Source: Winogradskya humida (lineage in GTDB: Bacteria; Actinomycetota; Actinomycetes; Mycobacteriales; Micromonosporaceae). From it: a stretch of DNA of 64,000 nucleotides. Location of the stretch: the NCBI RefSeq assembly GCF_016862215.1, contig NZ_BOMN01000125.1:1-64000 (forward strand), read 5' to 3'. The translations under genes were made by a program, and so were the position numbers. The notes beneath the pieces were generated by a model. That model was not told the DNA's origin. It saw only the letters and a list, made by a program, of their open reading frames with translations, and ran no database searches. Positions 20,046 through 62,757 of this stretch are shown one piece after another. Within the stretch, counting starts at the first letter, position 1; each line of letters begins with the position of its first letter.

Positions 20046-21260
20046 TTACGCCATCGATCTGATCCCGCGGCTGAACGTCGCGACCAGGGCGGACACGCCG
20101 ACGAGCAGGGGGAAGACCAGCATCGCCAGGTCCGGGGCGAAGTGCGCCATCAGCAGGCCCGCGAGGCCGGGAGCCAGCGCCGCCGCTGACGTGGCGGCCA
20201 GGAAGATCACGCTGACCACCCTGCCCTGCAGGCGGTCGGGGGTGATCGCCGCCTGGTATCCGAAGAGGACGGCGTTGCAGGTCGGGCCGAGGAAGACCGC
20301 GGCGGCGAGCGGGACGGCGGCGAGAATGCTGTCGGTCAGGCGGGTGCTGGCGACCATCAGGGCGACGGTGGCCCAGCACAGGACGATGACCAGGGTGGGC
20401 AGGCGGAACCAGCGCTGGATGGCGGGGGCGGCGAACGCGCCGAGGAAGCCGCCCAGGCCGAAGATGGTGCTGGCGAGGCCGACCAGCACCGACGGGGTGC
20501 CGTTGCGTTGCAGGGCGATGATCAGCGAGAAGATCATGCCGGTGAACGCCATGTTGAGCGGCGCGGCGATGATCAGCAGGGCGCGCAGGAACGGGTTGGC
20601 GAGCACGAAGCGGATGCCTTCGCGCGCTCCGGTGCCGGTGTCCTCGGTGGTGGGTTCGCGGTGCTCCTGCAGTGGTGAGCGGATGAGCAGGATCGTGACC
20701 AGCGACAGCACGTAGGTGATCGCGTTTCCCACGAACGGCAGGGAGCGGGACAGGCCGAAGAGCAGGCCGCCCAGGGGTGGGCCGGCGAGCGAGGTTCCGT
20801 ACGACCGTGCCTCGTTGCGGGCCACCGCGGTGCTGAGCTGTGCCGGTGGCACCAGGTTGCGGATCGCGGCGTGCTCGGCGGTGCTGAAAAGGGCGTTGGC
20901 GGCCGCGGCGATGACGGCGACCACGATGATGGCGAGCAGCGTCGCGGTGCCGGTCACGACCATGATGCCGAGCACGCCGAACGCCGCGATCCGGACGGCG
21001 TCGCAGATGACCATGAGCCGGCGGCGGTCGAGCCGGTCGGCGAGCACCCCGGCGGGCAGCCGGCAGGCGAGGGTGACGAGCAGCCCGGCCGTGCCGACGA
21101 GACCGGCCTGCGCGGGTGAGCCGGTCAGGGCGAGGACCAGCAGCGGCAGGGCCAGGTTTGCCACCGCGCTGCCCAGGTCGGACAGGACCTGGCTGGACCA
21201 GAGCAGGTTGAAGTCGCGGTTGCGCCAGAGGCTCGGCGGGCGCACGTCGGTGGCGGTCAT
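20046..21260 (-). CDS. MFS exporter, EntS-like, last gene of the NRPS operon
   Basis: The 404-residue transporter has about twelve helices with the MFS loop ADRLDRRRLMVICDAVR between helices 2 and 3, resembling the EntS/TetV (MFS_3) group that exports siderophores and antibiotics. ATG 21260 overlaps the stop codon of the KamA-family gene (ATGA), so the two are translated together. The longer open frame up to 21614 only shadows the KamA gene. As the only transporter in the operon, it probably exports the peptide and may give self-resistance. Confidence 0.85.
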   Translation of the reverse strand: MTATDVRPPSLWRNRDFNLLWSSQVLSDLGSAVANLALPLLVLALTGSPAQAGLVGTAGLLVTLACRLPAGVLADRLDRRRLMVICDAVRIAAFGVLGIMVVTGTATLLAIIVVAVIAAAANALFSTAEHAAIRNLVPPAQLSTAVARNEARSYGTSLAGPPLGGLLFGLSRSLPFVGNAITYVLSLVTILLIRSPLQEHREPTTEDTGTGAREGIRFVLANPFLRALLIIAAPLNMAFTGMIFSLIIALQRNGTPSVLVGLASTIFGLGGFLGAFAAPAIQRWFRLPTLVIVLCWATVALMVASTRLTDSILAAVPLAAAVFLGPTCNAVLFGYQAAITPDRLQGRVVSVIFLAATSAAALAPGLAGLLMAHFAPDLAMLVFPLLVGVSALVATFSRGIRSMA

Positions 21261-22522
21261 CGGGGCCACCACGAGCCGAGGGCGGGCCGCAGGTCGCTGA
21301 ACCATTCGGCGCCCGGGTCGAGGTGGGCGAGGAACTGCCGGCCGACCTGGGCGGGGTCGCGGGACTGAAGCATCCGCAGGGAGAACACGTCGGTGCCGGC
21401 GACGGTCATGGTGCCGTCGATCAGCACCTTGCCGGGGGCCGCGGACATGACAGGGCCGCGAGCGGTGCGGGCGAGACCGGACACCTGCCGGACGGCGTCG
21501 GTGTAGACCTGAAGAGCTTTGACGAGGGGTACGCCGAAGTAGCTCTGCGCCCCGGTGTCCCGCTCGACGAACATGTAGTAAGGGATGGCGCCGACCTCCA
21601 CCAGGCCCTGCCACAGGGTCGCCCAGTCCTCGGCGCGATCGTTGACGTGCGCGGTGACCGGGGCCTGCGCGCGGATCACGGCGCCCGTGGCCCGGATCCG
21701 CCGGATCGCCTCGCGGACCAGCGGCGTCTCCAGCTCGCGCGGATGCGTGAAGTGAGCCATCACAGCAACATGCTTACCAGCCGCGACGCAGCGTTCAAAG
21801 AGCCGCAGCAGGTCGTCGGCGTCGGCGTCCGTGGTGAAGCGGGCCGGCCAGTACGACAGTGCCTTGGTGCCGAACCGCAGGGTGCGGACGTGCTCCAGCT
21901 CGGGGGCCAGCGCCGGGGACACCCACCGGTCCAGCACCGCGGCGCTCATGATCATGGGGTCGCCGCCGGTGAAGAGCAGATCGGTGACGTTCGGGTCGGC
22001 GGCGACGTACGCCATCACCTCGGCGACGTCCGGCGCGGCCTGCTTGAGCTCGCTGTTGCCGACGAACTGGGCCCAGCGGAAGCAGTACCCGCAGTACGCG
22101 TGGCACGTCTGCCCCTGTGCGGGGAAGATCAGGACCGTCTCGGCGTACTTGTGCTGGACGCCTTCGAGACGCCGGCCGTGCCGGGTCGGGACGTTCGCCG
22201 ACACCTGGGCCCCGGGGTTCGGGTTGAGCTGCGCGTGCGCGTCCAGGGCCGCCTTGCGCAGGACGGCGGGCTCGGCGGAGCTCTGCATCAGCTGCGACAG
22301 GTGCTCGAAGATGGGTTCCGGGAGCATGTCGCGGTGCGGGAAGGTGAGCCGGAAGATCGGGTCGTCGGGGGCGGCGGACCAGTCGATGAGCTCGTTCACC
22401 ACGTAGTCGTTCACCTTGAACGGGAGCACGGACGAGACCACCCGCAGGTCGTGCAGGTACTCCTCGGACATGCCCCGTCCGGCCGCGAGCCGGGCCAGGC
22501 GTTCGTGCGAATAGACCTTCAT
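21257..22522 (-). CDS. KamA-family radical SAM enzyme (aminomutase-like), substrate unknown
   Basis: The 421-residue protein belongs to the lysine 2,3-aminomutase family. The [4Fe-4S] triad is CHAYCGYC (about residues 139-146), and the following FRW keeps the Arg that binds the substrate carboxylate in lysine 2,3-aminomutase. LLFTGGDP is the SAM-binding GGD motif, and the Lys in SAAPGKVL (about 364) matches the PLP lysine. The two Asp that hold the substrate's epsilon-amino group in the clostridial enzyme are absent: the first region reads YYMFVERDTG and the second VMSAAPGK. A 2,3-aminomutase acting on another amino acid, or on a carrier-bound residue, is possible. ATG 22522 has AAGGTGA upstream. 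Confidence 0.8.
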   Translation of the reverse strand: MKVYSHERLARLAAGRGMSEEYLHDLRVVSSVLPFKVNDYVVNELIDWSAAPDDPIFRLTFPHRDMLPEPIFEHLSQLMQSSAEPAVLRKAALDAHAQLNPNPGAQVSANVPTRHGRRLEGVQHKYAETVLIFPAQGQTCHAYCGYCFRWAQFVGNSELKQAAPDVAEVMAYVAADPNVTDLLFTGGDPMIMSAAVLDRWVSPALAPELEHVRTLRFGTKALSYWPARFTTDADADDLLRLFERCVAAGKHVAVMAHFTHPRELETPLVREAIRRIRATGAVIRAQAPVTAHVNDRAEDWATLWQGLVEVGAIPYYMFVERDTGAQSYFGVPLVKALQVYTDAVRQVSGLARTARGPVMSAAPGKVLIDGTMTVAGTDVFSLRMLQSRDPAQVGRQFLAHLDPGAEWFSDLRPALGSWWPR

Positions 22523-22591: not shown

Positions 22592-22807
22592 TCAGTTGCC
22601 GGCCGCGGCCATCCGCTCGCGCAGGCTCAGCGGGCGCATGTCGGTCCACACCTCGTCGATGTGGGTCAGGCAGTCGGGCTTGGTGCCCTCGAAGCCCGTC
22701 GCGCGCCAGCCGGCCGGGATCTCGCGGTCGGCGAACCAGATCGAGTACTGCTCCTCGTGGTTGATCACGACGCGGTAGGTGCGGGTGTCCTCATCGGTGG
22801 TGGCCAT
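22592..22807 (-). CDS. MbtH-like protein
   Basis: The 71-residue protein matches the MbtH family throughout: [24 protein letters not shown], then [23 protein letters not shown] with the conserved Trp residues. MbtH proteins bind the A-domain N-terminal subdomain and are needed for solubility or activity of many NRPS adenylation domains, so it should serve the three NRPS proteins upstream. A clear ribosome binding site (AGAAGGAG) precedes ATG 22807. Confidence 0.96.
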
Positions 22808-22860: not shown

Positions 22861-24081
22861 TCAGAGCCGGACCGGGAGTTCCTCGAGGCTGCGGTTGAGC
22901 AGCGAGGGTTGCCAGCGCGGCGGGCCGCCGGCGAGCGCGATGCCGGGGGCGGCGGCGAGCAGGTCGGTGATCGCGGAGCCGGCGACGAGCCGGGCGAGCG
23001 GGGCGCCGAGGCAGAAGTGCGCGCCCTGACCGAACCCCACGTGCGGGTTCGGGCTGCGGGTGATGTCGAGGCGGTCCGGGTTCTCGAAGCGGGCCGGGTC
23101 GCGGTTGGCGGCGGCGTGCACGAGATACATCCGCTGGCCGGCGCGCAGGTGCTGCCCGGCGAGGTCGAAGTCGGTGCCGACCTGCCGGATGGACATCTTG
23201 GACGGGCCGTCGAAGCGCAGCAGCTCCTCGACCGCCGGGCCCGCGAGCGCCGGGTCGGCGCGCAGCCGGTCCAGCTCGGCGGGGTGGCGCAGCAGGTTCC
23301 ACATGCCGACCGCGATCAGGTTGCTGGTGGTCTCGCCACCGGCGAACGCGATGTGGGTCAGCATCGCGACGAACTCGTCGTCGCTGACGGAGTCGCCGAC
23401 CAGGCCACCGGCGAGAGCAGCGCTGATCAGGTCCTCGCGCGGGTCGGCGCGGCGTTCGGCGACGAGTCGCTTGAGATAGCCGAAGAGGTCGAGCAGTGCC
23501 TGCTGGGAGCGTTCGTCGTCCTCCGGCGACTGCACCGCGCCGAGGGCGAGGTCGCCGACCCGGATCGCCCAGCGCTGGAACATCGCGGTGTCCTCGACCG
23601 GCACGCCCATCCAGGCCGCCGCGACCGTGGCGGGCAGCGGGCGGGCGAAGTCGGCGACCAGGTCGGTCACCGTACGCCCGGCACCGGCCTGGGCCGTGAG
23701 CCGCGCGACGGCCGCCTCGACCATGGGCCGGTTCCGGCGGACCTGGCGGGGGCCGAACGCGCCCTTGAACACCGACCGCAGCCGGCGGTGCTCGGGCGGG
23801 TCGACGAACACCATCCAGCCCGCCATGATCTCGAACGCGCGCGCCGCCTCGGGGGTCAGGAGGTGCTTCGGGGTCAGCCGCATGACCGGGCTGATCCGGT
23901 CGGCGGAGACGGCGGGCTCGTGGAAGCACGCTGCCACCTGCTCGTACCCGGTGATCAGCCAGGCGCGGTGCACGGAGCTGAAGTGGACCGGTGCGGCGGC
24001 GCGCAGCTCGCCCAGGTAGGGGTACGGGTCGGCGACGAGCTCATCGTCCAGCAGGTAACGGTCGCGAATCCCGGTGATCAT
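22861..24081 (-). CDS. Cytochrome P450 tailoring enzyme
   Basis: The 406-residue soluble P450 has the I-helix oxygen-binding motif AFAGGETTS (about residue 249), the K-helix EELLR (about 285) and the haem loop [15 protein letters not shown] with the Cys ligand near residue 354. Its ATG overlaps the stop codon of the terminal NRPS (ATGA), so it is made with that protein and probably hydroxylates or cross-links the peptide or a carrier-bound residue. No ferredoxin or ferredoxin reductase gene is nearby, so redox partners must come from elsewhere. I see no P450-recruiting X domain in the NRPS proteins. The site of oxidation cannot be predicted. Confidence 0.92.
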
Positions 24082-30000: not shown

Positions 30001-31229
30001 GCGACCTGCAGGATCAGGTCGAACTTGACGGCGTCCAGGTCCAGGTCGAACCGCTCGCCGAGCACGTCACCGAGGCGCACCGGGCGGTCGTCGGTGTCGT
30101 CGTCGAGGCTGAACATGGTCCGGAACGGCGGCTGCGACGGGTCACGGCCGGGGCGCAGGGCGTTGATGACCTGCTCGTACGGGACGTCCTGGTGCTCGTA
30201 GGCCCCGAGCGCGTCGTCGCGTACCCGGCCGAGCAGCTCACCGAACGACGGATCGCCAGACAGGTCCGCGCGCAGGACGAGGGTGTTGACGAAGAACCCG
30301 ATCAGGTTCTCCACCTCGGGCCGGTCGCGTCCCGCGACGGGGGTGCCGATGCCGAAGTCGTGCTGGCCGCTGAGCCGGGCCAGCAGCACCTGGTACGCGG
30401 CGGCCAGCGTCATGTAGAGCGTCGCGCCGTGCGCCCGGCCGACGCGTTCCAGCCCGGCGAGCAGCTCCGCGTCGAGGGTGAACTCCTGCGCCCCGCCGGC
30501 CCACGAGCTGCCGGGTGCCCCGGACCGGTCGGCGGGCAGATCGAGGGCCGGCACCCCGGTGAGCCGGTCCCGCCAGTAGCCGAGGTCCCCGGCGAGCCGG
30601 TCACCGGTCAGCTCCCGGCGCTGCCACGCGGCGAAGTCGGCGTAGCGCACCGGCAGCTCCGCGAGCTCCTCGCCGGCGTAGAGGGCCTCGATCTCGCGGA
30701 CCAGAACGCCCATCGACCAGCCGTCCGCGACGATGTGGTGGACGCTGACCTGCACAACGTGCTCGCCGGCGCCGAGCCGCCAGACCACGACCCGGAACAG
30801 CGGGCCTGCGGACAGGTCGAACGGGAGCCGGGCCTGCGCCGCGGCGAGCTCGCCGACGGTGTCCGGGCGGTCCGACAGGTCGGCGACGGTGATGCCGTAC
30901 CAGCCGGGGTCGATGTCCTGGCGCACCTCGCCGTCCTCCAGGGAGAACCGGGTCCGCAGTACGTCGTGCCGGGCGACCAGGGTGTCGAACGCGGCGGACA
31001 GCCGGTCGAGGTCCAGCGCGCCGGTGAGCCGCCACGCGACCGGGACGGTGTACGCGGGCCCGGAACCCTCGAGGCGGTCGAGGAACATCAGCCGGGCCTG
31101 GCCGAACGAGACGGGAAGCCCGCGGGTGGCCGTGCCCCGGGTCATCGGCTGCGCGGGTGACTGCGGCTCGATGCGTCCGGCCAGCCGCCTGCTGAGCAGC
31201 TCGCGTTGCGCGGTGGTGAGGACGGTCAT
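24078..31229 (-). CDS. NRPS3: C-A-T-C-A-T-TE, terminal synthetase
   Basis: 2383 residues. Module 6: LCL-like C domain (HHIVADGWS about 168), A domain ([11 protein letters not shown] about 631; by-eye code DFWSVGMVHK, close to the Thr code), carrier with GGDSI (about 1026). Module 7: an atypical C domain starting [13 protein letters not shown], with CHAVLDGWS (about 1236) in place of HHxxxDG but keeping the catalytic second His; A domain (YTSGSTG about 1676; code DAFFLGGFFK, aliphatic-like); carrier GGHSL (about 2061); thioesterase with GWSMGG (about 2196) and a C-terminal His in GTHRSMM. The thioesterase releases or cyclises the product. ATG 31229 overlaps the NRPS2 stop and its own stop overlaps the P450 start. 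No epimerase or methyltransferase is present. Confidence 0.92.
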
Positions 31230-34200
31230 GCGATTTCCTCCAGCTTCCGGGCGAGCCTGGCGATCGTGCGGGCCTCGAAGAAGGCGCGCAGCGTGAGGCG
31301 TACGCCGATGCGGTCGCGCAGCCGGGAGATGACCCGGAGCGCGGTGAGCGAGTGGCCGCCGAGCGCGAAGAAGTCGTCGTCGACGCCGAGGTCGCCCCGG
31401 TCGAGCAGGTCCTCCCACACCTCGGCGAGGACCTTCTCGGTCGTGGTGCGCGGCGCGACGTACTCGCGGGCCGGTGCCGCGGCGGCGATCTCGGGCAGCG
31501 CGGCCCGGTCGACCTTCCCGTTGCCCAGCAGCGGCAACTCGGGCGCCACGAGCAGGTCGGCGGGCACCATCGCGTGGGGCAGCCGCTCCTCGAGATGGGC
31601 GCGCAGGGCGGCGGTGGTGAGCCCGGGGCCGGCCTGGGCGTACCCGGCGAGTTTCCATCCACCGGCACCGTCGGGGCGGGCGAGCACCGCGGCGCCCCCG
31701 ACCCCGGGGCAGGCCGCGAGCGCCGCCTCCACCTCGGCGGGCTCGACGCGGACCCCGCGCACCTTGACCTGCCGGTCGAGCCGGCCCCGGAACTCCAGGG
31801 TGCCATCCGCAAGACAGCGGGCGGCGTCTCCGGTGCGGTAGAGGCGGGTGCCGTCCGGGGCGGGCACGAAGGACGCGGCGGTCGCCCCGGGACGGTTCTG
31901 GTAGCCGCGGGCGACCCCGGCACCGCCGATGAAGATCTCGCCGAACACGCCGGCCGGGACCGGCCGCATCCCCCGATCGAGGATCTGCACGGTCGTGCCG
32001 GGCATCGGGCGGCCGATCGGCACCCGGTCGTGCTCCGCCGCCGGGTCGAGGTCGTGGACCGTGGTCGTGATGGTGGCCTCGGTCGGGCCGTACTGGTTGA
32101 CGACCCGCCGCAGGCCCGGCAGCGCCCGGTGGAGCTTGGTGAGCAGGCCGGGCGTGCAGGCCTCGCCGCTCACCGTCAGCAGGCGCAGGCCGGGCAGCTG
32201 GCCGGCGGTGAGGTCGCCGCCGTCGAGCAGGTGGTGCAGCAGCGACGGCACGATGCTGAGGATCGCCGTCGGCGCGGGTCGCCCGGCGAGGTCGGTGCCG
32301 AGCGTGGACAGATCGGACTGCTCAGCCATCAGCACGGTGGCGCCGACGGTCAGCGGCCCGACGCAGTCCCGCAGGAACGCGTCGAACGACGGGGTGGCCC
32401 GTTGCAGGACGACGTCCGCGCCGCCGAGGCGGTAATGCTTCAGGATCGTCTCCAGGTACGCCGCCACGTTGCCGAAGTCGGTCAGCACTCCTTTCGGGCG
32501 ACCGGTCGAGCCGGAGGTGTACGTGACGTAGGCGAGGTGATCGGGGCGGATGTCCACGGTGGGGGCGCTCTGGGCGTACCCCTCAAGGCTTGTCATTGTT
32601 CGGGGGGTGACCAGGAGCTGGGCGTCGGAGTCCTCGCGCAGCTCGGCGATCCGCCGGGCCGGCAGGTCCGGGTCGAGGGCGACGAACGCCGCGCCGGCCT
32701 TCCAGATCCCCAGCACCGCGACCAGCGTGTCCGCGCCGCGGGGCAGCCGCAGCCCGACCCGGCACTCCGGTCCTGCGCCGTGCGCGAGCAGGTAGTGCCC
32801 GAGCTGGTTGGCGCGTCCGTCGAGCTCGGCGTAGGTGAGGGTCGCGTCGGCGGCGATCACCGCGGTGGCGTGCGGGGTGAGCCGGACCTGCTCGGTGAGC
32901 GTGTCCAGGAGCAGGGTGGACTGTCGCGGGGGTGATGCCGTGACAGCGCTCGGGAACAGGTCACCCAGCCGGGTCGCGGGGTGGTCCACGATCACGGCGA
33001 GCAGCTGCCGGTAGGCGCCGGCCATCCGCTCGGCCGTCGCGGTGTCGAGGATGTCGGTGCTGTAGTCGAGGCTCCCGGCGAGCCCGTCCGGGCCGTGCAC
33101 CATTTCGAGGGTCAGGTCCAGCTTCGCGGCACGGCGGTCCAGCGGCACCGCCGGCCCGGTGGCGGATCCGAGATCCAGCTCGCCCAGGGTCCAGTCGTTG
33201 AACGTGAACATCGTCTGGAACAGCGGCGACCGGGCCAGGTCGCGGTCCGGGTGCAGGGCCTCGACCAGCTTCCCGAAGGGCACCGCCTGATGACGGTACG
33301 CGTCCAGCGCCCGGTCACGCACCCGGTCGAGCAGCTCCCCGAACGCGGGGTCGCCACCGAGATCGGCCCGCATCACCAGCGTGTCCAGGAAGAACCCGAC
33401 GACGTCGCGGATCTCCGCCCGGCCCCGGCCCGCGACCGGCGTGCCGACCCCGAAGTCGTCCTGCCCGGTCCAGCGCCCGAGCAGCGCCTGGAACCCCGCG
33501 AGCAGCGTCATGTAGAGCGTCGCGCCGTGCTCCCGGCCCAGCTTCTCCAGCCCGGCCGCCACCTCGGGGGCGACGGTGAACTCGCAGGTGCCACCCTCGC
33601 CGGTGCGGCGCGCGGGCCGCGGGTGGTCGGCGGGGAGCTCCAGGTCGGGCAGTGCGGCGAGCCGGTCGCGCCAGTAGTCCAGGTCCGCCGTCGCACGGTC
33701 CCCGGTCAGCTCGCCGGCCTGCCACGCGGCGTAGTCGGCGTAGCGGACGGGCGGGGCCGGGAGGTCCGCGCCGCCGTAGAGGGCCTGGAGGTCGTTGATG
33801 AGGACGCCGAGGGACCAGCCGTCGGCGACGCTGTGGTGCATCGCGAGGAGCAGGACGTGCTCGTCGTCGCGTACCTGCCAGAGGACGGCCCGGAAGAGGT
33901 TGCCCGCGGTCAGGTCGAACGGCGTCCTGGCAGCGTTCTCGGCTGCCTGCACTGCTTCGGCGAGGGTGGGCGCGGTGTGCCGGGTCAGGCCGGTCCAGCC
34001 GGGTTCGAGGTCCTGGCGCACCTCGCCGTCGGTGAGCGTGAAGCGGGTACGCAGCGCGTCGTGCCGGGCCACCAGGATGTCGAGCGCGGTGGCGAGGCGG
34101 GCAGGGTCGAGCGGGCCGGTGAGGTGCCAGGCCACCGGGATGATGTACGCCGCCCCGGCGTCCTCCAGGCGGTCCAGGAACACCAGCCGCGCCTGGCCCG

Positions 34201-37200
34201 AGGTGACCGGCAGCCCGGTCGTCGCGGTGCCGCGGACGATCTCACCGGTCACCGGGGATGCGTCGTCGAGGAGCCGGGCGAGCGCGGCGACCGTCCGGGT
34301 GGCGAAGAGGTCGCGGAACGAGATCTCCCGGCCGGTGCGGGCGGCGATGGCGCTGACCACGCGGATGGCGAGCAGCGAGTGGCCGCCGAGGTCGAAGAAG
34401 TCGTCGTCGGTGCCGGGTTCGGGGATGCCCAGGACGTCCGCCCAGACCTCGGCCACGGCGTGTTCCATCGGGGTTCCGGGGGCCCGGCGGTTCTTGGTCG
34501 GCGTGGGTGTGGGCTCGGGTAGTGCCGCGCGGTCGACCTTGCCGTTGGCGGTGATCGGGAGGGCGGCGAGGATCTGGACGGTGGCGGGCACCATGTACGC
34601 GGGGAGCTGCTGGGCCACGAAGCCGCGCAGGTCACCGGGCTCCTGGTCGGCTATGGCGTATGCGGCCAGGGAGAGGGTGCCGGCGCGGTCCGGGCGGGCC
34701 ACGACGACGGCGTCGCGGACGGCGGGGTGGCGGCGGATTGCCGCTTCGATCTCGCCGAGCTCCACGCGGAAGCCGCGGATCTTCACCTGGCCGTCGGCGC
34801 GGCCGATGAACTCGAGGGCTCCCGTCCTGTTCCAGCGGACCAGGTCGCCGGTGCGGTAGAGCCGGCCGCCGGGCTCGCCGAAGGGGTCGGGCACGAAGGA
34901 CGAAGCGGTGCGGGCCGCCGCGCCGAGGTAGCCGCGGGCCAGGCCGGGGCCGCCGAGCAGCAGCTCACCGGTCACGCCTTCAGGCACCAGTCGCAATTGA
35001 TCATCGACCACGTAGGCGGTCGTGTTGGCCAGCGGCCGCCCGATCGGCACCCGCGCCACGTGGTCGGTGACCGGCCGCTCGCTCGGCTCCTGCGCCGCGG
35101 GGTCGGTGACCGGCTGCTCGCTCGGCTCCTGCGCCGCGGGGTCGGTGACCGGCTGCCAGGTGGCGAACGTCGCTGCTTCGGAGGGGCCGTACATGTGCAG
35201 GAGGGCGCCGGCACGGGCGCGGTGGGCGATGGCGTTCACCGCGGTCGGGTCGGCGGCCTCGCCACCGAACAGGACGTGGCGCAGGCTGTCGAACGCGTCG
35301 GGGCGCTCCCGGACCACCTGGTTGAACAGGGCGGTGGTGAGGAACAGCGTGGTGATCCCGTGGCGGGCGAGGTGTGCGGTGAGCGCGGCGGGTGACAGCA
35401 CCACGTCGGGCGGGGTGACGACGACGGTGGCGCCGGCGACCAGGGGCGCCCACAGCTCGAACGCGGCGGCGTCGAAGACCGGGTTGGCGGCGAAGGCGAC
35501 CCGGTCGCCGGGGCCGAGGTCCGCGTATCCGCCCTCGCGCACGGTCCGGACCGCTGCCCGGTGGGTGATGCCGATGCCCTTGGGTCGGCCGGTCGAGCCG
35601 GAGGTGTAGACGATGTACGCGAGGTTGTCCGGGTGCACGCCTGCGTCGAACGCCGCCGCAGCGGGATATTCGGCCGTGGGGTCGACGATCCGGCAGCCGT
35701 CGGCGCGGCCTTCCACGGTGATGAGCAGGTCGGCGTTGCAGTCGGTCATCATGATCCGGGTACGCGCGGCCGGCTGCGCGGTGTCCAGCGGCAGGTACGC
35801 GCCACCGGCCTCGAGCACCGCGAGCTGCGCGACGACAAGCTCCGCCGAGCGCGGCAGGCTCACCGCGACCACCGTCTCCGGCCCGACGCCGAGGCCGCGA
35901 AGGTGCGCGGCGAGCCGGTGCGCCCGCTCGAGCATCCCGGCATACGACCAGACGCGCTCGCCGTCGACGATCGCCGGGCCGTCGCCTGTGACGAGCTGGT
36001 GCAGGCAGAGCTCGGGTAGCCGCGGCCGGTCCGCCGTGCCGAGGCTCAGCAAGCGGTCGCGGTCGCCGGCGCCGAGAGCTTCCTCTCCGTCGAGCAGGCG
36101 CCGGAAGCCGTCGGCGAGCCGCTCCACCGTGGAGTCGTCGAACAGGTCGGTGGCGTACTCGAAGAGGCCCGAGAGCGTGCCGTCCGGGCCGCGATCGATG
36201 AACAGCGTGAGATCACACTTCGCGGTGCGCCAGCCGACCGGCACCTCGGTCACAGTCGTCCCGGGCAGCCGCAGCGCGGTCTCCCCCGTGTCACGCAGGG
36301 CGAACATCGCCTGGAAGACAGGCGTACGGCTCGCATCGCGTACCGGCCGCAGATCCTCGACCACCCGCTCGAACGGCAGATCCTGGTGCTCCTGCGCGGT
36401 GAGCACAGCCTCGCGGACCCGGTCGATCAGCTCGCCGCGCGCCGGGTTACCCGTCAGGTCGGCCCGGATCGCGAGCGTGTTGACGAAGAAGCCGACGACG
36501 TCCTCGGTCTCGGGGCGCGACCGGCCCGCGGCGGGCGTACCGATGGCGAAGTCCTGCTGGCCGCTCCACCGGCCGAGCAGCACCTGGAACGCCGCGAGCA
36601 GCACGGTGTGGACGGTGGTGGCGTGTTCCTGGGCGATCCGGGTCAGCGCCGGGACCACGTCGGCGGGCAGCTCGAAGCGGTGGGTGGCGCCGGCGCTGCC
36701 GAGCACGGTGGGCCGCTGCCTGTCGGTGGGCAGTTCCAGCGCGGGTACGCCGCCCAGCACGCCACGCCAGTGCGCCAGCTCCCGCTCCTCGCGCTCCGGG
36801 GTGAGTTCGGCGCGCTGCCACGCCACGAAGTCCTGGTAGGAGGAGGCGGGAGCGGGGGTGAGCACGCCGGCGTAGAGGTTGCCGAGTTCCTGGGCGATCA
36901 GGCCGAGCGACCAGCCGTCCGCGACCACGTGATGCAGCACCAACAACAACACGTCGTGCTCCGGCAGACGGAACAGCACGGCTCGCCACAGCGGCCCGGC
37001 GGCCAGGGCGAACGGGCGGCGCAGCTCGTCAGTGGCCAGCTCGCCGGTCCACTCGTCGTGGTCGGCGCGGCGCAGGTCCACCGCGGGGGTCTCCTCGACG
37101 ACCGGCTCGACCTGCCCGGCGACGACCGGGAAGCGGGTGCGCAGCGCGTCATGCCGGGCGGCGAGCCGTTCCAGCGCGCGCCGCAGGCCGGTCTCGTCGA

Positions 37201-39058
37201 GCCGCCCCTCGATCCGCCAGGCCACCGGGATCACGTAGGCGGGGCTGTCCGGCTCGAGGTGCTGCAGAAACAGCAACCGATCCTGACCGGAGGAGGTACG
37301 CGGACCAGCGCCCTCCACCACCTCGGCGGCAGCGGCAACCGGCGCAGCCCTGGTAGCGAGCGTCTCCACGGTCAGGCCGTCGAACAGCTCGCGGACGGTG
37401 AGGTCGACGCCCACCTCCTCGCGCAGCCGGGCGATCAGGCGCACGGCGAGCAGCGAATGGCCACCCAGCTCGAAGAACGTGTCGTCGATCCCGACCGCGC
37501 CGATGCCGAGCACCGACGCGTACACCGCGGCGATCCGTTCCTGCGCCGGCGTCTGTGGTGCGCGGTAGGCGGTGGCGATCTCGGGGCGTTGCGGGGCGGG
37601 CAGCGCCTTACGGTCCAGTTTGCCGTTCGGGGTCAGCGGCAGCTCGTCCAGCGCCACGAACGTCGACGGGATCATGTAGGAGGGCAGCCGGTCGGCGAGG
37701 CGGTCCCGCAGCTCGTTCAGGTCGAGGCCCGCGCCGACGACGTACGCGATGAGGCGCACCTCGGCAGCGGACCCGGCCGCCACGACGACCGCGGCACGGA
37801 CCCCGGGCTGCTCGCCGAGAACGGCCTGGATCTCGCCGGGCTCGACCCGGTTGCCGCCGAGCTTGAGCTGCTCGTCGACGCGGCCCAGGCAGTCGACCAC
37901 CCCGGGGCTGTGCCAGGCGGACAGGTCGCCGGACGCGTACATCCGGGTGCCGGGCTCGCCGTAGGGGTCGGGCCGGAACCGGTCCGCGGTGAGCCCGGGC
38001 CGGCCGAGATAGCCACGGGCCAGCTGGACGCCCGCCAGGTACAGCTCGCCGGAGCGTTCGGCGGGCCGCAGCTCGTCGTCGAGGATGTGCAGCTGGGTGT
38101 TCGCGACGGCGGACCCGATCGGGACGCGCGGGCCGGTCCAGCCGGGCTCGCAGTGCCAGGCGCTGACCTCGATCGACGCCTCGGTCGGACCGTAGAGGTT
38201 GTGCAGGTCCACGTCGGGCAGCAGCCGCATCAGCCGCTCGGCCAGGTCGACCGGCAGGGCCTCGCCGCTGGTCATCACGCGGCGCAGGCTGTGGCACCGC
38301 TCGACGCCGGGCTCGCCGGTGAACATCGCCAGCATGGTCGGGATGAAGTGCACGGTGGTGATCTCGCGGGAGCGGATGAGGTCGAGGAGGTAGCGGCTGT
38401 CGCGGTGGCCACCGGGGCGGGCGATCACGAGCCGGGCGCCGGCGATGAGCGGCCAGAACAGTTCGTAGACCGAGACGTCGAACGCGTACGGCGTCTTCTG
38501 CACCACCCGTTCGTCGGGGGTCATGCCGTACTCGTTCTGACCCCAGCGCAGCCGGTTGACGACGCCGCGGTGCTCGACCACCACGCCCTTGGGCAGCCCG
38601 GTCGAGCCGGACGTGAACATGACGTACGCGGTGTTGCGGTCGCTCAGCACGGCCGGTTCCAGCACGTCCGGCTCGTCGGCCGTGTCCGCCGTGGTCAGCT
38701 CGGTGAGGCCGGGCAGGCCCAGGTCGCGGTCCATGCCGGGGCCGCGGAGCAGCGCCACCGCGCCGGCGGATTCCGTCATGTAGCTCAGCCGGTCGGTCGG
38801 CAGTTCGAGATCCAGCGGGAGGTACGCTGCCCCGCTCTTGAGGATGCCGATCAGCCCGACGACGAGGTCCAGGGAACGTTGCGCTGCGAACGCGACCACC
38901 GTCTCGGGACCGGCCCCACGGCGGCGCAGCGCGTTCGCCAGGCGGTTGGCGCGCAGGTCCATCTCCCGGTACGTCAGCTGCGTACCGTCGAATTCCAGGG
39001 CAATCGCGTCCGGGGTGCGCCTGGCCTGCGCCTCGATCAGCTCATGGATGGTCTTCAC
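31226..39058 (-). CDS. NRPS2: A-T-C-A-T-C-A-T, begins without a C domain
   Basis: 2610 residues. The protein starts directly with an adenylation domain ([11 protein letters not shown] about 151; by-eye code DVYHMSLIEK, Ser-like) and carrier (GGHSLL about 534). Module 4 has a C domain (HHVVADGWS about 713), an A domain (about 1153; code DAFFLGMTFK, aliphatic-like) with a 13-residue tandem duplication at about 1301-1332, and a carrier (about 1559). Module 5 has a C domain (HHSVADGWS about 1744), an A domain (about 2182) with the unusual [12 protein letters not shown] and code DARSTSQITK, and a carrier (about 2570). GTG 39058 overlaps the NRPS1 stop (GTGA). An A-T start is normally the mark of an initiation module, which conflicts with its middle place in the operon. 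Confidence 0.92.
35062..35155 (-). repeat. 39-bp tandem duplication inside the module 4 A domain
   Basis: Two near-identical 39-bp copies (35062-35100 and 35101-35139, one mismatch) and 16 bp of a third encode [12 protein letters not shown]-type repeats between the A5 (YGPSE) and A6 (PIGRP) regions. The frame is kept. The other A domains in the operon lack it. Confidence 0.9.
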
Positions 39059-42000
39059 GCCTGGCCCCCCATCGCGCGGGCGACGTCCTCGTCGGTCATG
39101 GCAGCGATCTCGCGCACGAGTTCCTCCTCGACCGCGGCGGCGAGCCGGGCCACGGTGGGTCGTTCGAACAGGGTCCGCAGGCCGACGTCGCAGCCGAAGG
39201 CCGCCCGCAGCCGTACGGTGACCCGGGTCGCGAGCAGCGAATGGCCACCCAGGTCGAAGAAGTTGTCGTGCACCCCGATCCGGTCGGTGCGCAGCACCTC
39301 GCGCCACACCGCGGCGACGGTCTCCTCGGCGGGCGTACGCGGCGGCTCGTAGGCGGCCAGGTCCGCGCGGTGGCCGTCCGGGCTGGGCAGGCGGGCCGGA
39401 TCGAGCTTCCCGCCGACCGTACGCGGCAGCTCGTCGACGAGGATCGTGACGGCGGGTACCAGGTACGCGGGCAGCCGTTCGGCGAGCCATTCGCGGGCCG
39501 GTGCGCGGCCGGCGACGTACGCGACGAGCCGGTCCTGCTCGGCAAGCACCGCGACGTCACGCACGTCCGGGTGTTCGCGCAGCCGGGCCTCGACCTCGTC
39601 CGGCTCGACCCGGAACCCGCGGATCTTCACCTGGTCGTCGCGGCGGCCCCGGAACTCCAGCTGTCCCGCGGTGTTCCAGCGCACCAGGTCCCCGCTGCGG
39701 TACATCCGTGCGCCGGGTTCGGCAGGGTCGGGGAGGAACCGGTCGGCGGTCAGGCCGGGGGCGCCGAGATAGCCGCGGGCGAGGAGGCTGCCACCGATGA
39801 ACAGCTCGCCGACCGTGCCGACGGGCACCGGCCTCAGGTTCTGGTCGAGGACCTTCAGGTCGCGGTCGCCGAGCGCGCGGCCGATCGGCACCACCGGGCC
39901 GGACACACCGGCGGGTACGTCGTAGGCGGTCGCGGAGATGGTGGCCTCGGTCGGCCCGTACGTGTTGACGACCGCCGCGCCGGGGTGCAGCTCGTTCCAG
40001 CGGGTCAGGTCGGCGGGCCGGACCGCGTCGCCGCCGAGCACCAGCAGCCGCAGTGTCGACAGGTCCCGCGCGGTGGAATCGGCGAGGAGCTCGGTCAGGT
40101 ACGCGGGGACCAGCTCCATCACGGTCACGCCGTGCCGGTCCACGTCGGCGACCAGCTCCGCCGGGTCGATGAGGCCGTGACCGGGCAGCACCAGGGAGCC
40201 GCCGCAGGTGAGGACGGGGAAGATCTGCTCGACGGACGCGTCGAACGCGAGCGCGGCGAACTGCAGCACCCGGTCGGCGGCGGTCAGCGCGAACCGGCGG
40301 CGCATCCGCTCGGCGTGCGCGCTCATCGCGCCCCGGGACACCCCGACGCCCTTGGGCCGGCCGGTGGATCCCGAGGTGTAGATGACGTACGCGAGCTGCT
40401 CCGGGTCGGATCCTTCTCTCAAAAAGCCTTGGGACGACGGCAGCGTGTCCTGCAACGTGAGGGTGAGCCCCGCGTCGGCGGTCACCAGGTCGACGCGCTC
40501 GGCGGGCCAGGACGGGTCGATGGGTACGTAGGCGGCGCCGGCCTTCAGCACACCGAGCACGGCGATCACCATGTCGATACCGCGCGGGAACCGGACGCCC
40601 ACTGTGGACTCGTTCCGCATGCCTTGCTTTTGCAGCCAGACCGCTACGCCATCGGAACGCGCGGCGAGGTCGGCGTAAGACACCGTCAGGTTTCCACTGC
40701 GCACCGCGACGGACTCAGGGGTGAGGGCGGCTTGACGGGTGAACGCCTCGACCACGTCGTTTGCGGTGGCGCTGTCCTCGCCTGCGCCGTAGTTGCTCAG
40801 GAGATCGTTTTCCCCGGCGGGCAGGTCGAGCTGTGACAAGCGGACCGACGGGTCGCGGACGACGTCGGTGAGGGTCCGGCGGCAGCGTTCGATGAGCGCC
40901 CGGACGGTCGTGGGGTCGAACAGGTCAGTGCGGAACTGCACGAAGCCGCCCGCCGCACCGGGGTCGGTGGTGAACGTGACCATCAGGTCGAACTTGGTCA
41001 CGTCGAACGGGATCTCGGCGGGCCGCAGCCGCGCGGCGCCGAGCCGGGGTGCGCCGACGGACCGGACCTCGAGGTCGAAGAGCACGTCGAACAGCGGGGT
41101 ACGCCCCGGCTCGCGCTCCGGCCGCAGCTCCTCCACGACCCGTTCGAACGGCACGTCCTGATGGGCGTACGCGTCCAGCGCGTGATCACGTACCCGGGTC
41201 AGCAGCTCGCCGAACGACGGGTCGCCGCCGAGCCCGGCCCGCATGACCAGCGTGTTGACGAAGAAGCCCACGACGTTCTCCACCTCGGGGCGGGTTCTCC
41301 CTGCCACCGGCACGCCGACGGCGAAGTCGTCCTGCCCGCTCCACCGGCCCAGCACCGCCTGGAAAGCGGCGAGCAGCGTCATGTACAGCGTCGCGCCGTG
41401 CTCCCTGCCGAGGCGTTCCAGCCCCGTGACGAGCTCCGGGTCGAGGGTGAACCCGCAGGTGTCACCGGACCAGGACGGCTGCTCGGGGCGCGGCCGGTCG
41501 ATGGGCAGCCGCAGCGCGGGCAGGTCGGCGAGGCGATCGCGCCAGTAGTCCAGGCCGCTGTCGGCTCCCGCCTCGCGGCGCTGCCAGCCCGCGTAGTCCG
41601 CGTACTGCACCGGCAGGTCGGCGAGGGTGTCGCCGTCGTAGAGCGCGCCGAGATCGCGGACGAGTACGCCCATCGACCAGCCGTCCGAGACGATGTGGTG
41701 CATGGCGAGAACGAGCAGGTGGTCGTCGTCGCCGGCCCGCCACACCAGCGCCCTGAACAGCGGGCCGCGGCTCAGGTCGAACGGCACGTGCAGTTCCTGC
41801 GCCGCGCGGCGGGCCGCGTCGTCCCGGTCGTCGGCCTCGCGCCAGTCGCTCGTGATCTCCGAGGTCGCCGAGACCCTTTGCACGGGCCGCGACTCCATGA
41901 CCGGGAACGTGGTGCGCAGGGACTCGTGCCGGTCGGCAAGGCGGCGCAGCGCCCGGTCGAGGCGGGCCTTGTCCAGGGGTCCGTCGACCCGCCAGGCCAG

Positions 42001-45000
42001 GGCCGCCATGTAGTCGGGCGACTCCGGGTCCATCCGGTTCAGGAACCACATGCGGTCCTGCGCGAACGACAGCGGGAAGTCACCCGTACGCACGAGCCGG
42101 TCGATCGTCGTCCGGGAGGCTGGTGCGTCGGCGGGCAGGGCCGCGGCGAGCTCGGCGATCGTGGGGTGCTCGAAGAATCCGCGTACGTCCACGGGCCGGT
42201 TCAGGGCCTTGGTCAGGCGCGCGGCGGCGATGGTGACGAGCAGCGAGTGCCCGCCGAGGTCGAAGAAGTTGTCGTGCACGCCGACCCGGTCGAGCTGCAG
42301 CACCTCGCACCACACCCGGGCGAACGCCTGCTCGGTGGCGTCGCGCGGGGCGACGAAACCGGTGGCCGGTTCGGGGCGGTGGCCGTCCGGGTCGGGCAGC
42401 CGCGCCGGGTCCAGCTTGCCGCCGACGGTCCGGGGCAGCTCGTCCATCGGCACGAACACGGCCGGGATCAGGTATTCCGGCAGCCGCCCGGCGAGCCAGT
42501 CCCGGTCCGGGCCGGAGCCCGCGAGGTACGCCACGAGCCGGTCGCGCCAAAGGATCACCGCGGCGTCGCGGACGCCGGGGTGTTCACGCAGCCGGGTCTC
42601 CACCTCGCCCAGCTCGACCCGGAAGCCGCGCACCTTGACCTGCCCGTCGCGGCGGCCCCGGAATTCCAGGGTGCCGTCGCCGCGCCAGCGCACGAGGTCG
42701 CCGGTGGCGTACAGGCGGGAACCGGGGGTCAACGGGTCGGGCACGAACCGGTCGGCTGTCAGCGCGGGACGGCCCAGGTAGCCGCGGGCCAGGTGGCCGC
42801 CGCCGATGAACAGCTCGCCGACCGACCCGGCCGGGACCGGGCGCAGGTCACCGTCGAGCACGTGCAGCCGGCGGTCGCCGATCGCGCGCCCGATCGGCAC
42901 CACCGGACCGGCACCGGCGGGGATCTCGTGGAGAGTGGCGGTGACGGTCGTCTCGGTCGGCCCGTACGCGTTGAGCAGCTCCACATCCGGGGCGAGCCCG
43001 GACCAGCGGGCGAGGTCGGCCGGGCGGACCGCCTCCCCGCCGAGGATCATCAGCCGCAGCGGGCCCGGCGTCCAGCTGGTGTCCTCCAGTGCACCCAGCA
43101 GCTCCCCGAAGTAGGCGGGCGGCAGGTTGGCCACGGTGACGCCGTGGCGGTCCAGCAACGCGCGCAGCACCGGCGGCGCGACCAGCCCGTGCTCCGGCAG
43201 CACCAGCGTCGCGCCGCAGGTCAGCGCCGGGAAGATCTGCTCGGCGGACTGGTCGAACGCGAGCGCCGCGAACTGCAGCACGCGGTCGGTGCGGCCCAGC
43301 GCGTACCGGCGCCGGATCCGCTGCACGTGCGCGCCGATCGAGCCGCGGGAGATGCCGACGCCCTTGGGCCGGCCGGTGGATCCGGAGGTGTAGATGACGT
43401 ACGCGAGCTGCTCCGGGTCGGCGACCGGGGTGACCACCGGCTCGGCGTCCTTCTCGGGCAGCGTCCCCTGCAGCATCAGCGAGACACCGGCGTCGGCGAT
43501 CACGAAGTCGACCCGTTCGCCGGGCCACGCGGGATCGACCGGCAGGTACGCCGCTCCGGCCTTGAGCACGCCCAGCACGGCGACGATCATGTCGGCGCCG
43601 CGCGGGAACCGTACGCCGACGATGGTCTCGGCTCCGGCGCCGTGGGCCCGCAGCCAGGACGCGACCCGGTCGGCGCGGGCGTCGAGGCCGGCGTACGACA
43701 GCGTGGTGTCCCCCGCGATCACCGCGACGGCGTCCGGGGTCCGCCGCGCCTGCCGTTCGACGGCCGTGACCAGGTCTCCCGGGGTGGCCGTGTCCCCCGC
43801 GCCGAAACCGCGCACCAGCGCCAGCTCGGCGGCGGGCAGCTCCAGGGTGCCCAGCCGGGTGGACGGGTCGGTGACCACGGCGGCGAGCAGGTCACGGAAC
43901 CGGCTGACCAGCCACTCGATCGTGGTGCGGTCGAACAGGTCGCTGCGGTAGACGACCGTGGCGGCAAGGTCGTCGGCGCGGGGCTCGACGAACAGCGACA
44001 CGTCGAACAGCGCCTTGGGCCGGTCCGCCTCGAAGTCGGTGAACCGCAGCGATCCGTGCTCCGCGCCGCCCGGCACGTTCTGCATCGCGAACCACGCGTG
44101 CACCAGCGGCGCGCCGGCGTCGTGCCGGTCCGGGCGCAGCTCGTGCACCACGCGCTCGTAGGGCACGTCCTGGTGGTCCAGCGCGTCCAGGGTGTTGTCG
44201 CGGACGGCGTCCAGCAGCCCCGCGAAGTCCGGGTCGCCCGCGAGGTCGGTGCGCAGGACCAGGGTGTTGACGAAGAATCCGATGAGGTTCTCGACCTCGG
44301 GGCGGCTGCGTCCCGCGACGGGGGTGCCGATGCCGAAGTCGGGGGCGCCGCTCCACCGGGCGAGCAGCATCTCGTACGCGGCCAGGAGGGTCATGTAGAG
44401 CGTGGCGCCGTGCTCCTGGCCGAGCTCGCGGAGCCCGGCGGTGAGCTCGGCGTCGATGGTGAACTCGCAGGTCGCGCCCGCCACCGAGGGCTGCTCGGGG
44501 CGCGGGTGGTCCACCGGCAGGTCGAGCGGGCCCAGGCCGGCGAGCCGGTCGCGCCAGTAGCCGGCCTCCGCGGGGTCGCCGTCGACCTCGTCGCGCTGCC
44601 AGGTGGCGAAGTCCGCGTACGTCATCGGCAGGTCCGGCGGGGTGCCGTCGTCGTAGAGGGTGCCCAGCTCGCGGATCATCACGCCCATCGACCAGCCGTC
44701 GGAGACGATGTGATGCGTCGCGGTGAGCAGGACGTGCTCGGTTTCGGACATCCGCCACACGATCACCCGCAGCAGCGGCCCGGTGGCCAGGTCGAACGGT
44801 TGCTGCGCGACGGCTTGTGCCTCGCGGGCCACCATGGCGGCGGAATCGGCGTCCCGCCACTCGATCGGCACGCCGGACTCGCCGGCGATCACGGCGACGG
44901 GGGCGCCGTCGCGGGCGGTGAAGGTGGTCCGCAGCGAGTCGTGCCGCCCGGCCAGCGTCGCGAACGCCCGCTCGAAGCGGGTGCGGTCCAGCGAGCCGTG

Positions 45001-61413: not shown

Positions 61414-62757
61414 TCACCGGGGCAGCGGGGGCAGTGCCGGCGTGTCGAGCCACTCCTTGAACAGCCCGTCCAGGGGTTCGCGGGAGAAGCGCTGCGCGTG
61501 CGCCCGGAAGTCCTCGCTCGTCACCGTCGCGTGCTGGTGCCCGGCCACCCAGGCGCGGACCATCGGGAAGAACGAGCCGGCGCCGACCTTCTTGCGCAGG
61601 GCGTGCAGAGTGAGCGCGCCGCGCTTGTAGACGGCCGGGTCGAACATCGCGTCCACCCCCGGGTCGGCCACCCGGATGCCGGCCGCGCTGACCGCGAGGT
61701 AGCCGTGCCACTGGGCCGCGAGGGTGTCGGCCGGGAGACCGCCGCTGACCTCGGACCACAGCCATTCCGCGTACGTCGCGAAGCCCTCGTTGAGCCAGAT
61801 GTGGCGCCAGTCCGCGACCGTGAGGCTGTTGCCGAACCACTGATGCGCCAGCTCGTGCACGACCAGCCGCTCGTGGGTGCGCTTGCCGTCGATGTGGTTG
61901 GCGCCGAAGATGGCCATCCCCTGCGCCTCGATCGGGTCGTCGAGCTCGTCGTCGGCGACCACGAGCACGTACTCCTTGAACGGGTACGGCCCGAAGTACC
62001 GCTGCAGCGTCGCCATGATCTCGCCGTGCCGGCCGAGGTCGTGGGTGGCGCCGGCGCGCAACCGCGGCGGGATGGCGGCGCGCTGCCTGATCGGGCCGGG
62101 CGCGGCGAGCTCCATCATCTCGTAACGTCCGATCTGGACGCTCATCAGATAGGGCGACGTGGGTTCGCGACGCTCGAAGACCCAGCTGGTCGCGCCCGCA
62201 CCACGCCACTTCGAGACAAGATCACCGGTCACCAGCACGGCGTACGCGGAAGCGACCGTCAACGCCACCCGATACGTCGCCTTGGCCGCCGGCTGGTCGT
62301 CGCACGGGAACCACGACGGCGCCCCGTTCGGCTGGCTCGCGACGAGCACGCCGTCGGTCAGCTCGTCCCACCCGATGTCGCCCCAGCGCCCGGAGATCGG
62401 CAGCGGCGTCCCCGAATACCGGATGTCGACCCGGAACGTGTCGCCGTCGTCGATCGGGCGCTGCGGCTTGATGAAAAGCTTGTGACCGCGCTGGAGGTGC
62501 TTCGCCGGCCACCCGTCGACCCGGACGTCCTGCACCCGGAAACGCCCGAGGTCGAGCGAGAACCGGGACAGCGCCTGACCGGCCACGGCGGTGATGGTGG
62601 CCTTGCCGCCGAGCCGGTTGGACGTGATCCGGTATTCCAGGTCCAGGTCGTAGTGCTCCACCCGGTACCCGCCGTTGCCGTGCTCCGGCAGGTACGAGTC
62701 CTGCGAGTGGTCCGCCCCCGGCTTGGCACCCCGCGGACCAGGTAACTTAGGCGTCAT
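61414..62757 (-). CDS. M1-family zinc metallopeptidase, short form
   Basis: The 447-residue protein has an N-terminal beta-domain (about 1-200) and a gluzincin catalytic domain with HELAHQWFG (about residue 297) and the third zinc ligand in NEGFATYAEW (about 320). The exopeptidase GxMEN-type motif appears altered (QGMAIFGAN). It stops soon after the catalytic domain and lacks the C-terminal HEAT domain of aminopeptidase N, as many actinobacterial homologues do. No signal peptide is seen. AAGGTGA precedes ATG 62757. Its start overlaps a 30-codon ORF that itself overlaps the Pls/PosA-like gene. Confidence 0.88.
   Translation of the reverse strand: MTPKLPGPRGAKPGADHSQDSYLPEHGNGGYRVEHYDLDLEYRITSNRLGGKATITAVAGQALSRFSLDLGRFRVQDVRVDGWPAKHLQRGHKLFIKPQRPIDDGDTFRVDIRYSGTPLPISGRWGDIGWDELTDGVLVASQPNGAPSWFPCDDQPAAKATYRVALTVASAYAVLVTGDLVSKWRGAGATSWVFERREPTSPYLMSVQIGRYEMMELAAPGPIRQRAAIPPRLRAGATHDLGRHGEIMATLQRYFGPYPFKEYVLVVADDELDDPIEAQGMAIFGANHIDGKRTHERLVVHELAHQWFGNSLTVADWRHIWLNEGFATYAEWLWSEVSGGLPADTLAAQWHGYLAVSAAGIRVADPGVDAMFDPAVYKRGALTLHALRKKVGAGSFFPMVRAWVAGHQHATVTSEDFRAHAQRFSREPLDGLFKEWLDTPALPPLPR

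What the first reader, a model, noticed from the sequence alone, without database searches (positions are those of the whole stretch)
21257..22522. KamA-family enzyme that should not use free lysine
Seen: the radical SAM Cys triad, the carboxylate Arg and the PLP Lys are present, but the two Asp that bind the substrate's distal amine in clostridial lysine 2,3-aminomutase (Asp293 and Asp330) are replaced in the regions YYMFVERDTG and VMSAAPGK, and three Gly of the PLP loop are missing. Known: glutamate 2,3-aminomutase also differs at these two positions. Inference: an aminomutase with another substrate, supplying a beta-amino acid to one NRPS module.
Basis: partly seen in the sequence, partly recalled or inferred. 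Interest (0 to 1): 0.65.

Follow-up and report, generated by a model that had tools for sequence, protein, structure and literature searches.

The report
Charge-reversed KamA-like enzyme in NRPS operon
The gene encodes a radical enzyme related to lysine 2,3-aminomutase whose lysine-binding acids are replaced, one by arginine, so it most likely makes beta-glutamate instead, probably as a building block for a peptide assembly line encoded beside it.

Summary
Confirmed, on the minus strand (22522-21257, 421 aa). Against lysine 2,3-aminomutase (2a5h) the stretch carrying both lysine-binding Asp aligns without gaps: Asp293 becomes Arg321, Asp330 becomes Val358, and three of four PLP-loop Gly are replaced. 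The Cys triad, carboxylate Arg149 and PLP Lys365 are kept. It belongs to a large subfamily in which Arg321, Arg352, Arg355 and Lys365 are invariant in 120 of 120 sequences. Ten other loci have a relative beside a PLP aminotransferase-fold gene, some in macrolactam-type cassettes whose printed counterparts (PlmK, IdnL4) are called glutamate 2,3-aminomutase; IdnL4 rests on gene disruption, and activity was not seen in vitro. Best reading: L-glutamate to beta-glutamate, for the NRPS of the same operon. Three same-family genomes keep the order NRPS, P450, MbtH-like, KamA, MFS. Which module takes the product is not shown: the third adenylation domain of NRPS2 (Arg239) is the best candidate, but that domain class also occurs without KamA. 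Substrate, product and peptide are inferred, not assayed.

The parts
21257..22522 (-). KamA-like radical SAM/PLP aminomutase, 421 aa (ATG; an in-frame GTG 20 codons upstream gives 441 aa)
   Evidence: AF2 model mean pLDDT 89.2, VIA Z 30.6 to 2a5h
22082..22105 (-). radical SAM motif, residues 140-147 CHAYCGYC
21560..21562 (-). codon of Arg321, at the place of KAM Asp293
   Evidence: alignment; 120 of 120
21449..21451 (-). codon of Val358, at the place of KAM Asp330 (Ser in 86, Val in 31, Ile in 3 of 120)
20046..21272 (-). MFS exporter; predicted start overlaps the aminomutase end by 16 bases
22592..22807 (-). MbtH-like protein, 71 aa
   Evidence: called gene; family name recalled from its sequence, no family search made; same place in three relatives
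22861..24081 (-). cytochrome P450
   Evidence: PF00067
24078..31229 (-). NRPS3: C-A-T-C-A-T-TE; codes DFWSVGMVHK and DAFFLGGFFK
31226..39058 (-). NRPS2: A-T-C-A-T-C-A-T (starts with A, no C); codes DVYHMSLIEK, DAFFLGMTFK, DARSTSQITK
31378..32911 (-). third A-T unit of NRPS2, approximate limits; Arg at position 239; best candidate for the beta-amino acid
   Evidence: against:
39055..45069 (-). NRPS1: C-A-T-C-A-T; codes DQENIGAVTK and DAEEVGTISK (start may lie upstream, to 45120)

Best explanation
A radical SAM, PLP-dependent 2,3-aminomutase working like IdnL4/PlmK. Shown by sequence and model: KamA fold, cluster motif, PLP lysine and carboxylate arginine kept, both lysine-binding Asp lost, one reversed in charge to an invariant Arg. 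Inferred: the pocket (Arg321, with Arg352 and Arg355 near the old Asp330) binds the distal carboxylate of L-glutamate; the 5'-deoxyadenosyl radical takes a C3 hydrogen, the PLP-bound nitrogen migrates from C2 to C3, and beta-glutamate (3-aminopentanedioate) is released. No relative of the aminotransferase-fold gene (the IdnL3-like candidate) was clustered in the window, so beta-glutamate itself is probably activated by the NRPS, most likely in the third module of NRPS2, and the peptide exported by the MFS protein.
For: Gapless alignment D293->R321, D330->V358. R321/R352/R355/K365 in 120 of 120. The window set and the macrolactam-type set have the same letters at KAM positions 293, 324 and 327, and Val (7 of 8; one Ile) at 330, in the 8 rows present of 10 named. 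An aminotransferase-fold gene lies directly beside KamA in 10 of 36 loci of the first set, a VinK-like gene in 5 (one of each tested). Loci L060 and L075 match the printed pretilactam order, where PlmK is called glutamate 2,3-aminomutase (PMC6631532, passages). IdnL4: feeding shows glutamate -> beta-glutamate, and idnL4 disruption confirms its role (PMC11284099, passages). NRPS-P450-MbtH-like-KamA-MFS in 3 of 3 genomes with 78-79% identity. Aspartate would be futile, since moving its amino group gives aspartate again (own knowledge).
Against: I know of no member with a measured activity, and IdnL4 showed none in vitro. Isotope feeding did not always agree with the clusters of this kind (PMC9230918, passages). 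The window enzyme lies in another branch than the macrolactam-type set. It scores 87 of 650 bits with the glutamate equivalog. The aminotransferase-fold neighbours tested matched aminotransferase-type models, below their cut-offs, and no decarboxylase model. The Arg239 A-domain class occurs in 10 of 29 other NQYGPTE loci with no KamA known nearby.
Confidence: 0.6

Rival explanations
1. Same chemistry, another acidic or polar substrate such as 2-aminoadipate or glutamine, giving a different beta-amino acid for the NRPS.
For: The window branch (3 rows, SH-aLRT 100) is nearest to Nocardia and then Rhodococcus-type enzymes from other kinds of clusters; KAM positions 209, 212, 297 and 326 differ from the macrolactam-type set.
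Against: The charged residues near both Asp positions are the same as in the macrolactam-type set.
Confidence: 0.2
2. The enzyme makes a beta-amino acid that is not built into the peptide (for example a solute), and the NRPS neighbourhood is incidental.
For: None of the 80 best named relatives has an NRPS-type A domain in the fetched DNA (25 of the 80 loci are under 15 kb).
Against: Predicted overlap of 16 bases with the MFS gene (13 in three relatives) and the same order in 3 of 3 close relatives.
Confidence: 0.12
3. The enzyme acts on a carrier-bound amino acid on the NRPS.
For: The NRPS is in the same operon; carrier-bound asparagine is isomerised in cystobactamid biosynthesis, by a different, apparently non-radical domain (PMC7966384, passages).
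Against: The carboxylate-binding Arg149 is kept, as for a free amino acid.
Confidence: 0.05
4. It is a lysine 2,3-aminomutase after all.
For: 13 of the 19 plasmid-borne relatives with 48% identity or more are annotated 'lysine 2,3-aminomutase'.
Against: Both Asp replaced without alignment gaps; lysine equivalog 100 of 525 bits; the genome's other KamA-like protein keeps both Asp beside lysine 5,6-aminomutase-type genes.
Confidence: 0.03

Closest known systems
IdnL4 (incednine) and PlmK (pretilactam), glutamate 2,3-aminomutases by genetics and annotation
   Same: Enzymes from look-alike cassettes share Arg at the Asp293 place, Val at Asp330 (one Ile) and the PLP loop
   Different: The window enzyme lies in another branch and an NRPS operon, with none of the cassette's clustered aminotransferase-fold, VinK-like or PKS-like genes; IdnL4 and PlmK sequences not compared directly
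Lysine 2,3-aminomutase KamA (2a5h)
   Same: Fold (Z 30.6, rmsd 3.8, 324 aligned), Cys triad, Arg134, Lys337
   Different: Both substrate Asp and three loop Gly lost, no Cys after residue 245, 20% identity
Clostridial glutamate 2,3-aminomutase (TIGR04368)
   Same: Cation in place of Asp293 (Lys in that enzyme: recalled; the paper was not held)
   Different: 87 of 650 bits; Asn at Asp330 recalled, Val/Ser here
Arginine 2,3-aminomutase (BlsG, TIGR04468) and EpmB (TIGR03821)
   Same: KamA-type enzymes
   Different: 85 of 600 and 94.5 of 369.3 bits
Beta-lysine supply to NRPS products such as viomycin (recalled)
   Same: A KamA-type enzyme feeding a beta-amino acid to an NRPS
   Different: There lysine is the substrate; not examined here

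Membership tests
Radical SAM superfamily | CxxxCxxC cluster motif | tested here: met
   C140, C144, C147; PF04055 E 0.00059, 20.5 bits, under its cut-off of 29.5
KamA-type PLP aminomutases | PLP lysine and carboxylate arginine | tested here: met
   K365 and R149
KamA-type PLP aminomutases | fold of 2a5h | tested here: met
   Foldseek E 3.4e-18; VIA Z 30.6, rmsd 3.8, 324 aligned, next entry Z 13.4
KamA-type PLP aminomutases | NCBIfam TIGR00238 cut-off 199.2 bits | tested here: not met
   131.7 bits; all 8 proteins (6 of this subfamily, 2 more distant) are also below it
Lysine 2,3-aminomutase | Asp293 and Asp330 | tested here: not met
   R321 and V358
Lysine 2,3-aminomutase | zinc-binding Cys at 268 and in the C-terminus (recalled) | tested here: not met
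   only Cys 140, 144, 147, 245 in the protein
Glutamate 2,3-aminomutase, clostridial equivalog TIGR04368 | score over 650 bits | tested here: not met
   87.2 bits
IdnL4/PlmK-type glutamate 2,3-aminomutase | shared active-site letters | tested here: met
   compared with 8 macrolactam-type rows (10 named, 8 present); IdnL4 and PlmK themselves not available
IdnL4/PlmK-type glutamate 2,3-aminomutase | same branch as the macrolactam-type enzymes | tested here: not met
   window in a set of 11 rows (SH-aLRT 99), 8 of 9 macrolactam-type rows in another of 11 (100)
IdnL4/PlmK-type glutamate 2,3-aminomutase | conversion of L-glutamate to beta-glutamate | not testable with these tools
   needs an anaerobic assay

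The most novel reading that the evidence does not exclude
The whole subfamily is a bacterial beta-glutamate synthase of aerobes: standalone copies make beta-glutamate as a compatible solute in salt-loving bacteria (Marinobacter, Nocardiopsis, Ectothiorhodospira), and the gene was recruited several times into secondary metabolism: PKS starters, NRPS operons such as this one, and hydrazine-type clusters.
Probability: 0.3. Interest if true: 0.68.

Novelty: new variant of a known kind. Interest (0 to 1): 0.45.

Why it matters
Many genes now carried as 'lysine 2,3-aminomutase' (13 of 19 plasmid-borne relatives) probably have another substrate, and the reassignment is testable with one enzyme. It would give NRPS chemistry a route to beta-glutamate and could name a source of the beta-glutamate reported in Nocardiopsis halophila (PMC1224877, passages). 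IdnL4 has resisted assay; the window enzyme or a halophile copy is an alternative protein to try.

Tried and rejected
A-domain evidence. In the control set 1 of 63 A-domain rows (58 loci, some rows duplicated) has Lys or Arg at 239, and it is the window's; such a domain is present in 4 of 7 sets of loci with KamA and NRPS or NRPS-like genes (window and relatives; L059/L173; L172/L178; L056/L179, a free-standing A domain; not L064, L176 or L073/L076). I first took this as a sign of beta-glutamate, but 10 of the 29 other loci with the NQYGPTE motif carry the class. In one search seven of these ten genomes have no KamA match, two have it 1.7 and 2.1 Mb away, and one on another contig. So it is only suggestive. 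Genus loci are the best-scoring ones, so that control leans to common codes. Codes depend on alignment by one residue at position 278 (S, L). Code-to-amino-acid readings are recalled.

Other limits. The structure searches show fold only; no residue distances were available. Early NMR work ruled out a glutamate aminomutase as the source of beta-glutamate in methanogens (PMC1224877, passages), which speaks against carrying the solute idea over to them. My gene caller is simple: in L050 it called two large plus-strand genes where the NQYGPTE site shows a minus-strand NRPS, so NRPS1 and NRPS2 of that relative were not read. 'Macrolactam-type' is my label for the ten loci; L073 and L076 hold large NRPS genes (codes), and neither PKS-like nor VinK-like genes were clustered at L058. 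The hits of the A-domain profile in the 80 named loci both fall on one protein, in L148, with a code unlike an NRPS's.

Papers. One search (glutamate aminomutase, beta-glutamic acid, NRPS, Streptomyces) gave 0; in the listings of 25, 36, (20 of 26; 15 of 30; 15 of 704; 12 of 16) I saw no report of this subfamily in an NRPS. The library holds open-licence papers only, so absence from print is not shown. No product of the Mycetohabitans NRPS was found in the listing.

Rows dropped. One search kept 45 of 62 sequences after removing near copies, and 20 loci gave no usable called gene there; L071_8, with a broken Cys motif, was left out; one search found the gene in 79 of 80 loci; one search used 87 thinned rows with SH-aLRT support only, the three outgroup rows having very long branches. 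The output was cut, so part of L067 to L071 was not seen.

Full report
Observation. The finding's coordinates hold a gene on the minus strand, 22522 to 21257, 421 residues from an ATG (an in-frame GTG gives 441). The protein has CHAYCGYC at 140-147, Arg149 and Lys365. Its best NCBIfam match is TIGR00238 (KamA family) with 131.7 bits, under the cut-off of 199.2; the lysine, glutamate, arginine and EpmB equivalogs score 100, 87, 85 and 94.5 bits against cut-offs of 525, 650, 600 and 369. The only solved relative found by sequence at E up to 1 is clostridial lysine 2,3-aminomutase 2a5h (E 2.2e-15).

Alignment. From KAM Y287 to K337 the window needs no gap in MAFFT (the single gap column counted is empty in both rows). 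HMMER agrees up to KAM 315 and HHalign with a 32-sequence profile up to KAM 323; the rest, with Asp330, rests on MAFFT and on equal spacing to the PLP lysine. Asp293 pairs with Arg321, Asp330 with Val358, Gly333-336 with Ala-Ala-Pro-Gly. Arg352 and Arg355 stand at KAM Val324 and Phe327. The genome's second KamA-like protein has an Asp opposite both Asp in the HMMER pairing with 2a5h (in one search its second Asp is one column off) and lies beside genes with the alpha-subunit domain of lysine 5,6-aminomutase (PF09043, 814 bits) and a B12-binding partner.

Structure. AlphaFold2 gave mean pLDDT 89.2, pTM 0.90. The best PDB match is 2a5h: Foldseek E 3.4e-18, VIA Z 30.6, rmsd 3.8, 324 residues aligned, 20% identity, against Z 13.4 for the next entry. 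Fold shows kinship, not substrate.

Family. At E 1e-30, 17 of 396 genomes drawn from the phylum match, 11 of them (own included) at 51% identity or more, and 59 of 300 of the family, all but one at 50% or more. In 120 of 120 subfamily sequences (near copies included; 66 when thinned at 80% identity) Arg321, Arg352, Arg355 and Lys365 are invariant; position 358 is Ser in 86, Val in 31, Ile in 3. The Cys motif is invariant too, but 79 of the sequences were fetched by patterns on it. Window and macrolactam-type enzymes have Val at 358 (one Ile), 9 of 10 chosen standalone ones Ser.

Contexts. (A) Window type: NRPS, P450, MbtH-like, KamA, MFS, in the window and in three genomes of the same family with 78-79% identity; in two of these NRPS2 and NRPS3 were read in order, in the third only the end of the NRPS. 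(B) Ten of 36 loci of the first set hold a PLP aminotransferase-fold gene directly beside KamA; five of the ten hold a VinK-like gene, and the one tested matches VinK_C. A named example is the plasmid of Streptomyces sp. NBC_00334, with PKS, proline iminopeptidase, KamA, aminotransferase and AMP ligase by its own annotation. The published pretilactam cluster lists P450 (395 aa), glutamate 2,3-aminomutase (450), aminotransferase (419), malonyltransferase-like (308) and two AMP ligases (507, 529) in one run (PMC6631532, passages); L060 and L075 have the same order with sizes within 16 residues. A review states that IdnL3 decarboxylates beta-glutamate, that disruption of idnL4 confirmed its role, and that IdnL4 activity was not observed in vitro (PMC11284099, passages); another names glutamate aminomutase and decarboxylase genes in producers of salinilactam, micromonolactam, lobosamide and pretilactam among others, and adds that feeding results did not always agree (PMC9230918, passages). 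The aminotransferase-fold proteins of L060 and L174 match aminotransferase-type models below their cut-offs and no decarboxylase model. The length of the genome contig of L075, 5,183,331 bases, is the length I recall for Salinispora tropica CNB-440. (C) Standalone: in the 80 named loci (up to 10 kb each side; 25 under 15 kb) the A-domain profile hit only one protein, in L148, with a code unlike an NRPS's; 23 of the 80 are Marinobacter and 8 Nocardiopsis. Beta-glutamate has been detected in Nocardiopsis halophila; in methanogens early NMR work ruled out an aminomutase as its source (PMC1224877, passages).

Tree. With 87 thinned rows (quick method, SH-aLRT only), the window and two close relatives form one branch (100), joined by two Nocardia enzymes (96), in a set of 11 rows (99) that also holds Rhodococcus and same-family enzymes of other clusters; 8 of 9 macrolactam-type rows lie in another set of 11 (100). 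So this enzyme is a cousin of the macrolactam-type enzymes, not one of them.

NRPS. Seven A domains have codes DQENIGAVTK, DAEEVGTISK (NRPS1); DVYHMSLIEK, DAFFLGMTFK, DARSTSQITK (NRPS2); DFWSVGMVHK, DAFFLGGFFK (NRPS3). NRPS2 starts with A and NRPS3 ends with a thioesterase, so a line NRPS2-NRPS1-NRPS3 making a heptapeptide is plausible (inference). The third A domain of NRPS2 has Arg at 239; in codes that I recall, this position is Lys for Glu and Gln for Gln. A Mycetohabitans rhizoxinica NRPS 3.7 kb from a KamA relative has DARSLSQMTK. In 58 control loci only the window's domain has Lys/Arg239, but 10 of 29 other NQYGPTE loci have it with no KamA known nearby. I hold the module assignment at about 0.4.

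Mechanism. Shown: cofactor motifs, fold, loss of lysine-binding acids, conservation, gene order. Inferred: substrate glutamate, radical 2,3-shift, beta-glutamate, its use by the NRPS. An acidic substrate points to glutamate or longer, because the shift on aspartate returns aspartate. Aminomutation of a carrier-bound residue on an NRPS is known from cystobactamid, by a domain thought not to be a radical enzyme (PMC7966384, passages), so the carrier-bound rival is kept at low odds.

Verdict. The wider idea, that the subfamily makes beta-glutamate as a solute in halophiles, is open and testable; the list of 80 was ranked by likeness to the window and is not an unbiased census.

Noticed in passing
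window 61414-64000 (minus), continuing to 66646 of contig C125 (L048:1-2646): Peptidase M1 gene next to an A-T-hexapeptide-repeat NRPS-like gene with code DAESIGTVVK, resembling a poly-lysine synthetase (Pls) locus; resemblance recalled.
   Followed up: partly
L068 (own genome C13:164000-183999): A second KamA-like gene with both Asp, beside lysine 5,6-aminomutase-type genes: an apparent lysine degradation locus.
   Followed up: partly
L056; L179 (Rhodococcus sp. DK176 plasmid pDK3) 8001-14795: KamA relative with cupin, Lys/Orn N-hydroxylase, methionyl-tRNA-synthetase-like and saccharopine dehydrogenase-like genes (in L179), like clusters that make N-N bonds (recalled).
   Followed up: partly
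L090:7723-11272, L170:11432-16275: Nocardia KamA relatives (69% and 65% identity) in a set with a FemAB/GNAT-like gene and an MFS gene, without NRPS in the stretch.
   Followed up: partly
L171 (Amycolatopsis sp. AA4 plasmid): KamA relative beside a PLP aminotransferase and CoA ester lyase, MaoC and CoA transferase genes, which looks catabolic.
   Followed up: no
L071:10443-11489: A KamA homologue with a broken Cys motif (TLAYSRNC) directly beside an intact one.
   Followed up: no
L090-L169: Standalone relatives are frequent in Marinobacter and Nocardiopsis (23 and 8 of the 80 best named loci) and occur in other groups that I recall as salt-loving.
   Followed up: partly
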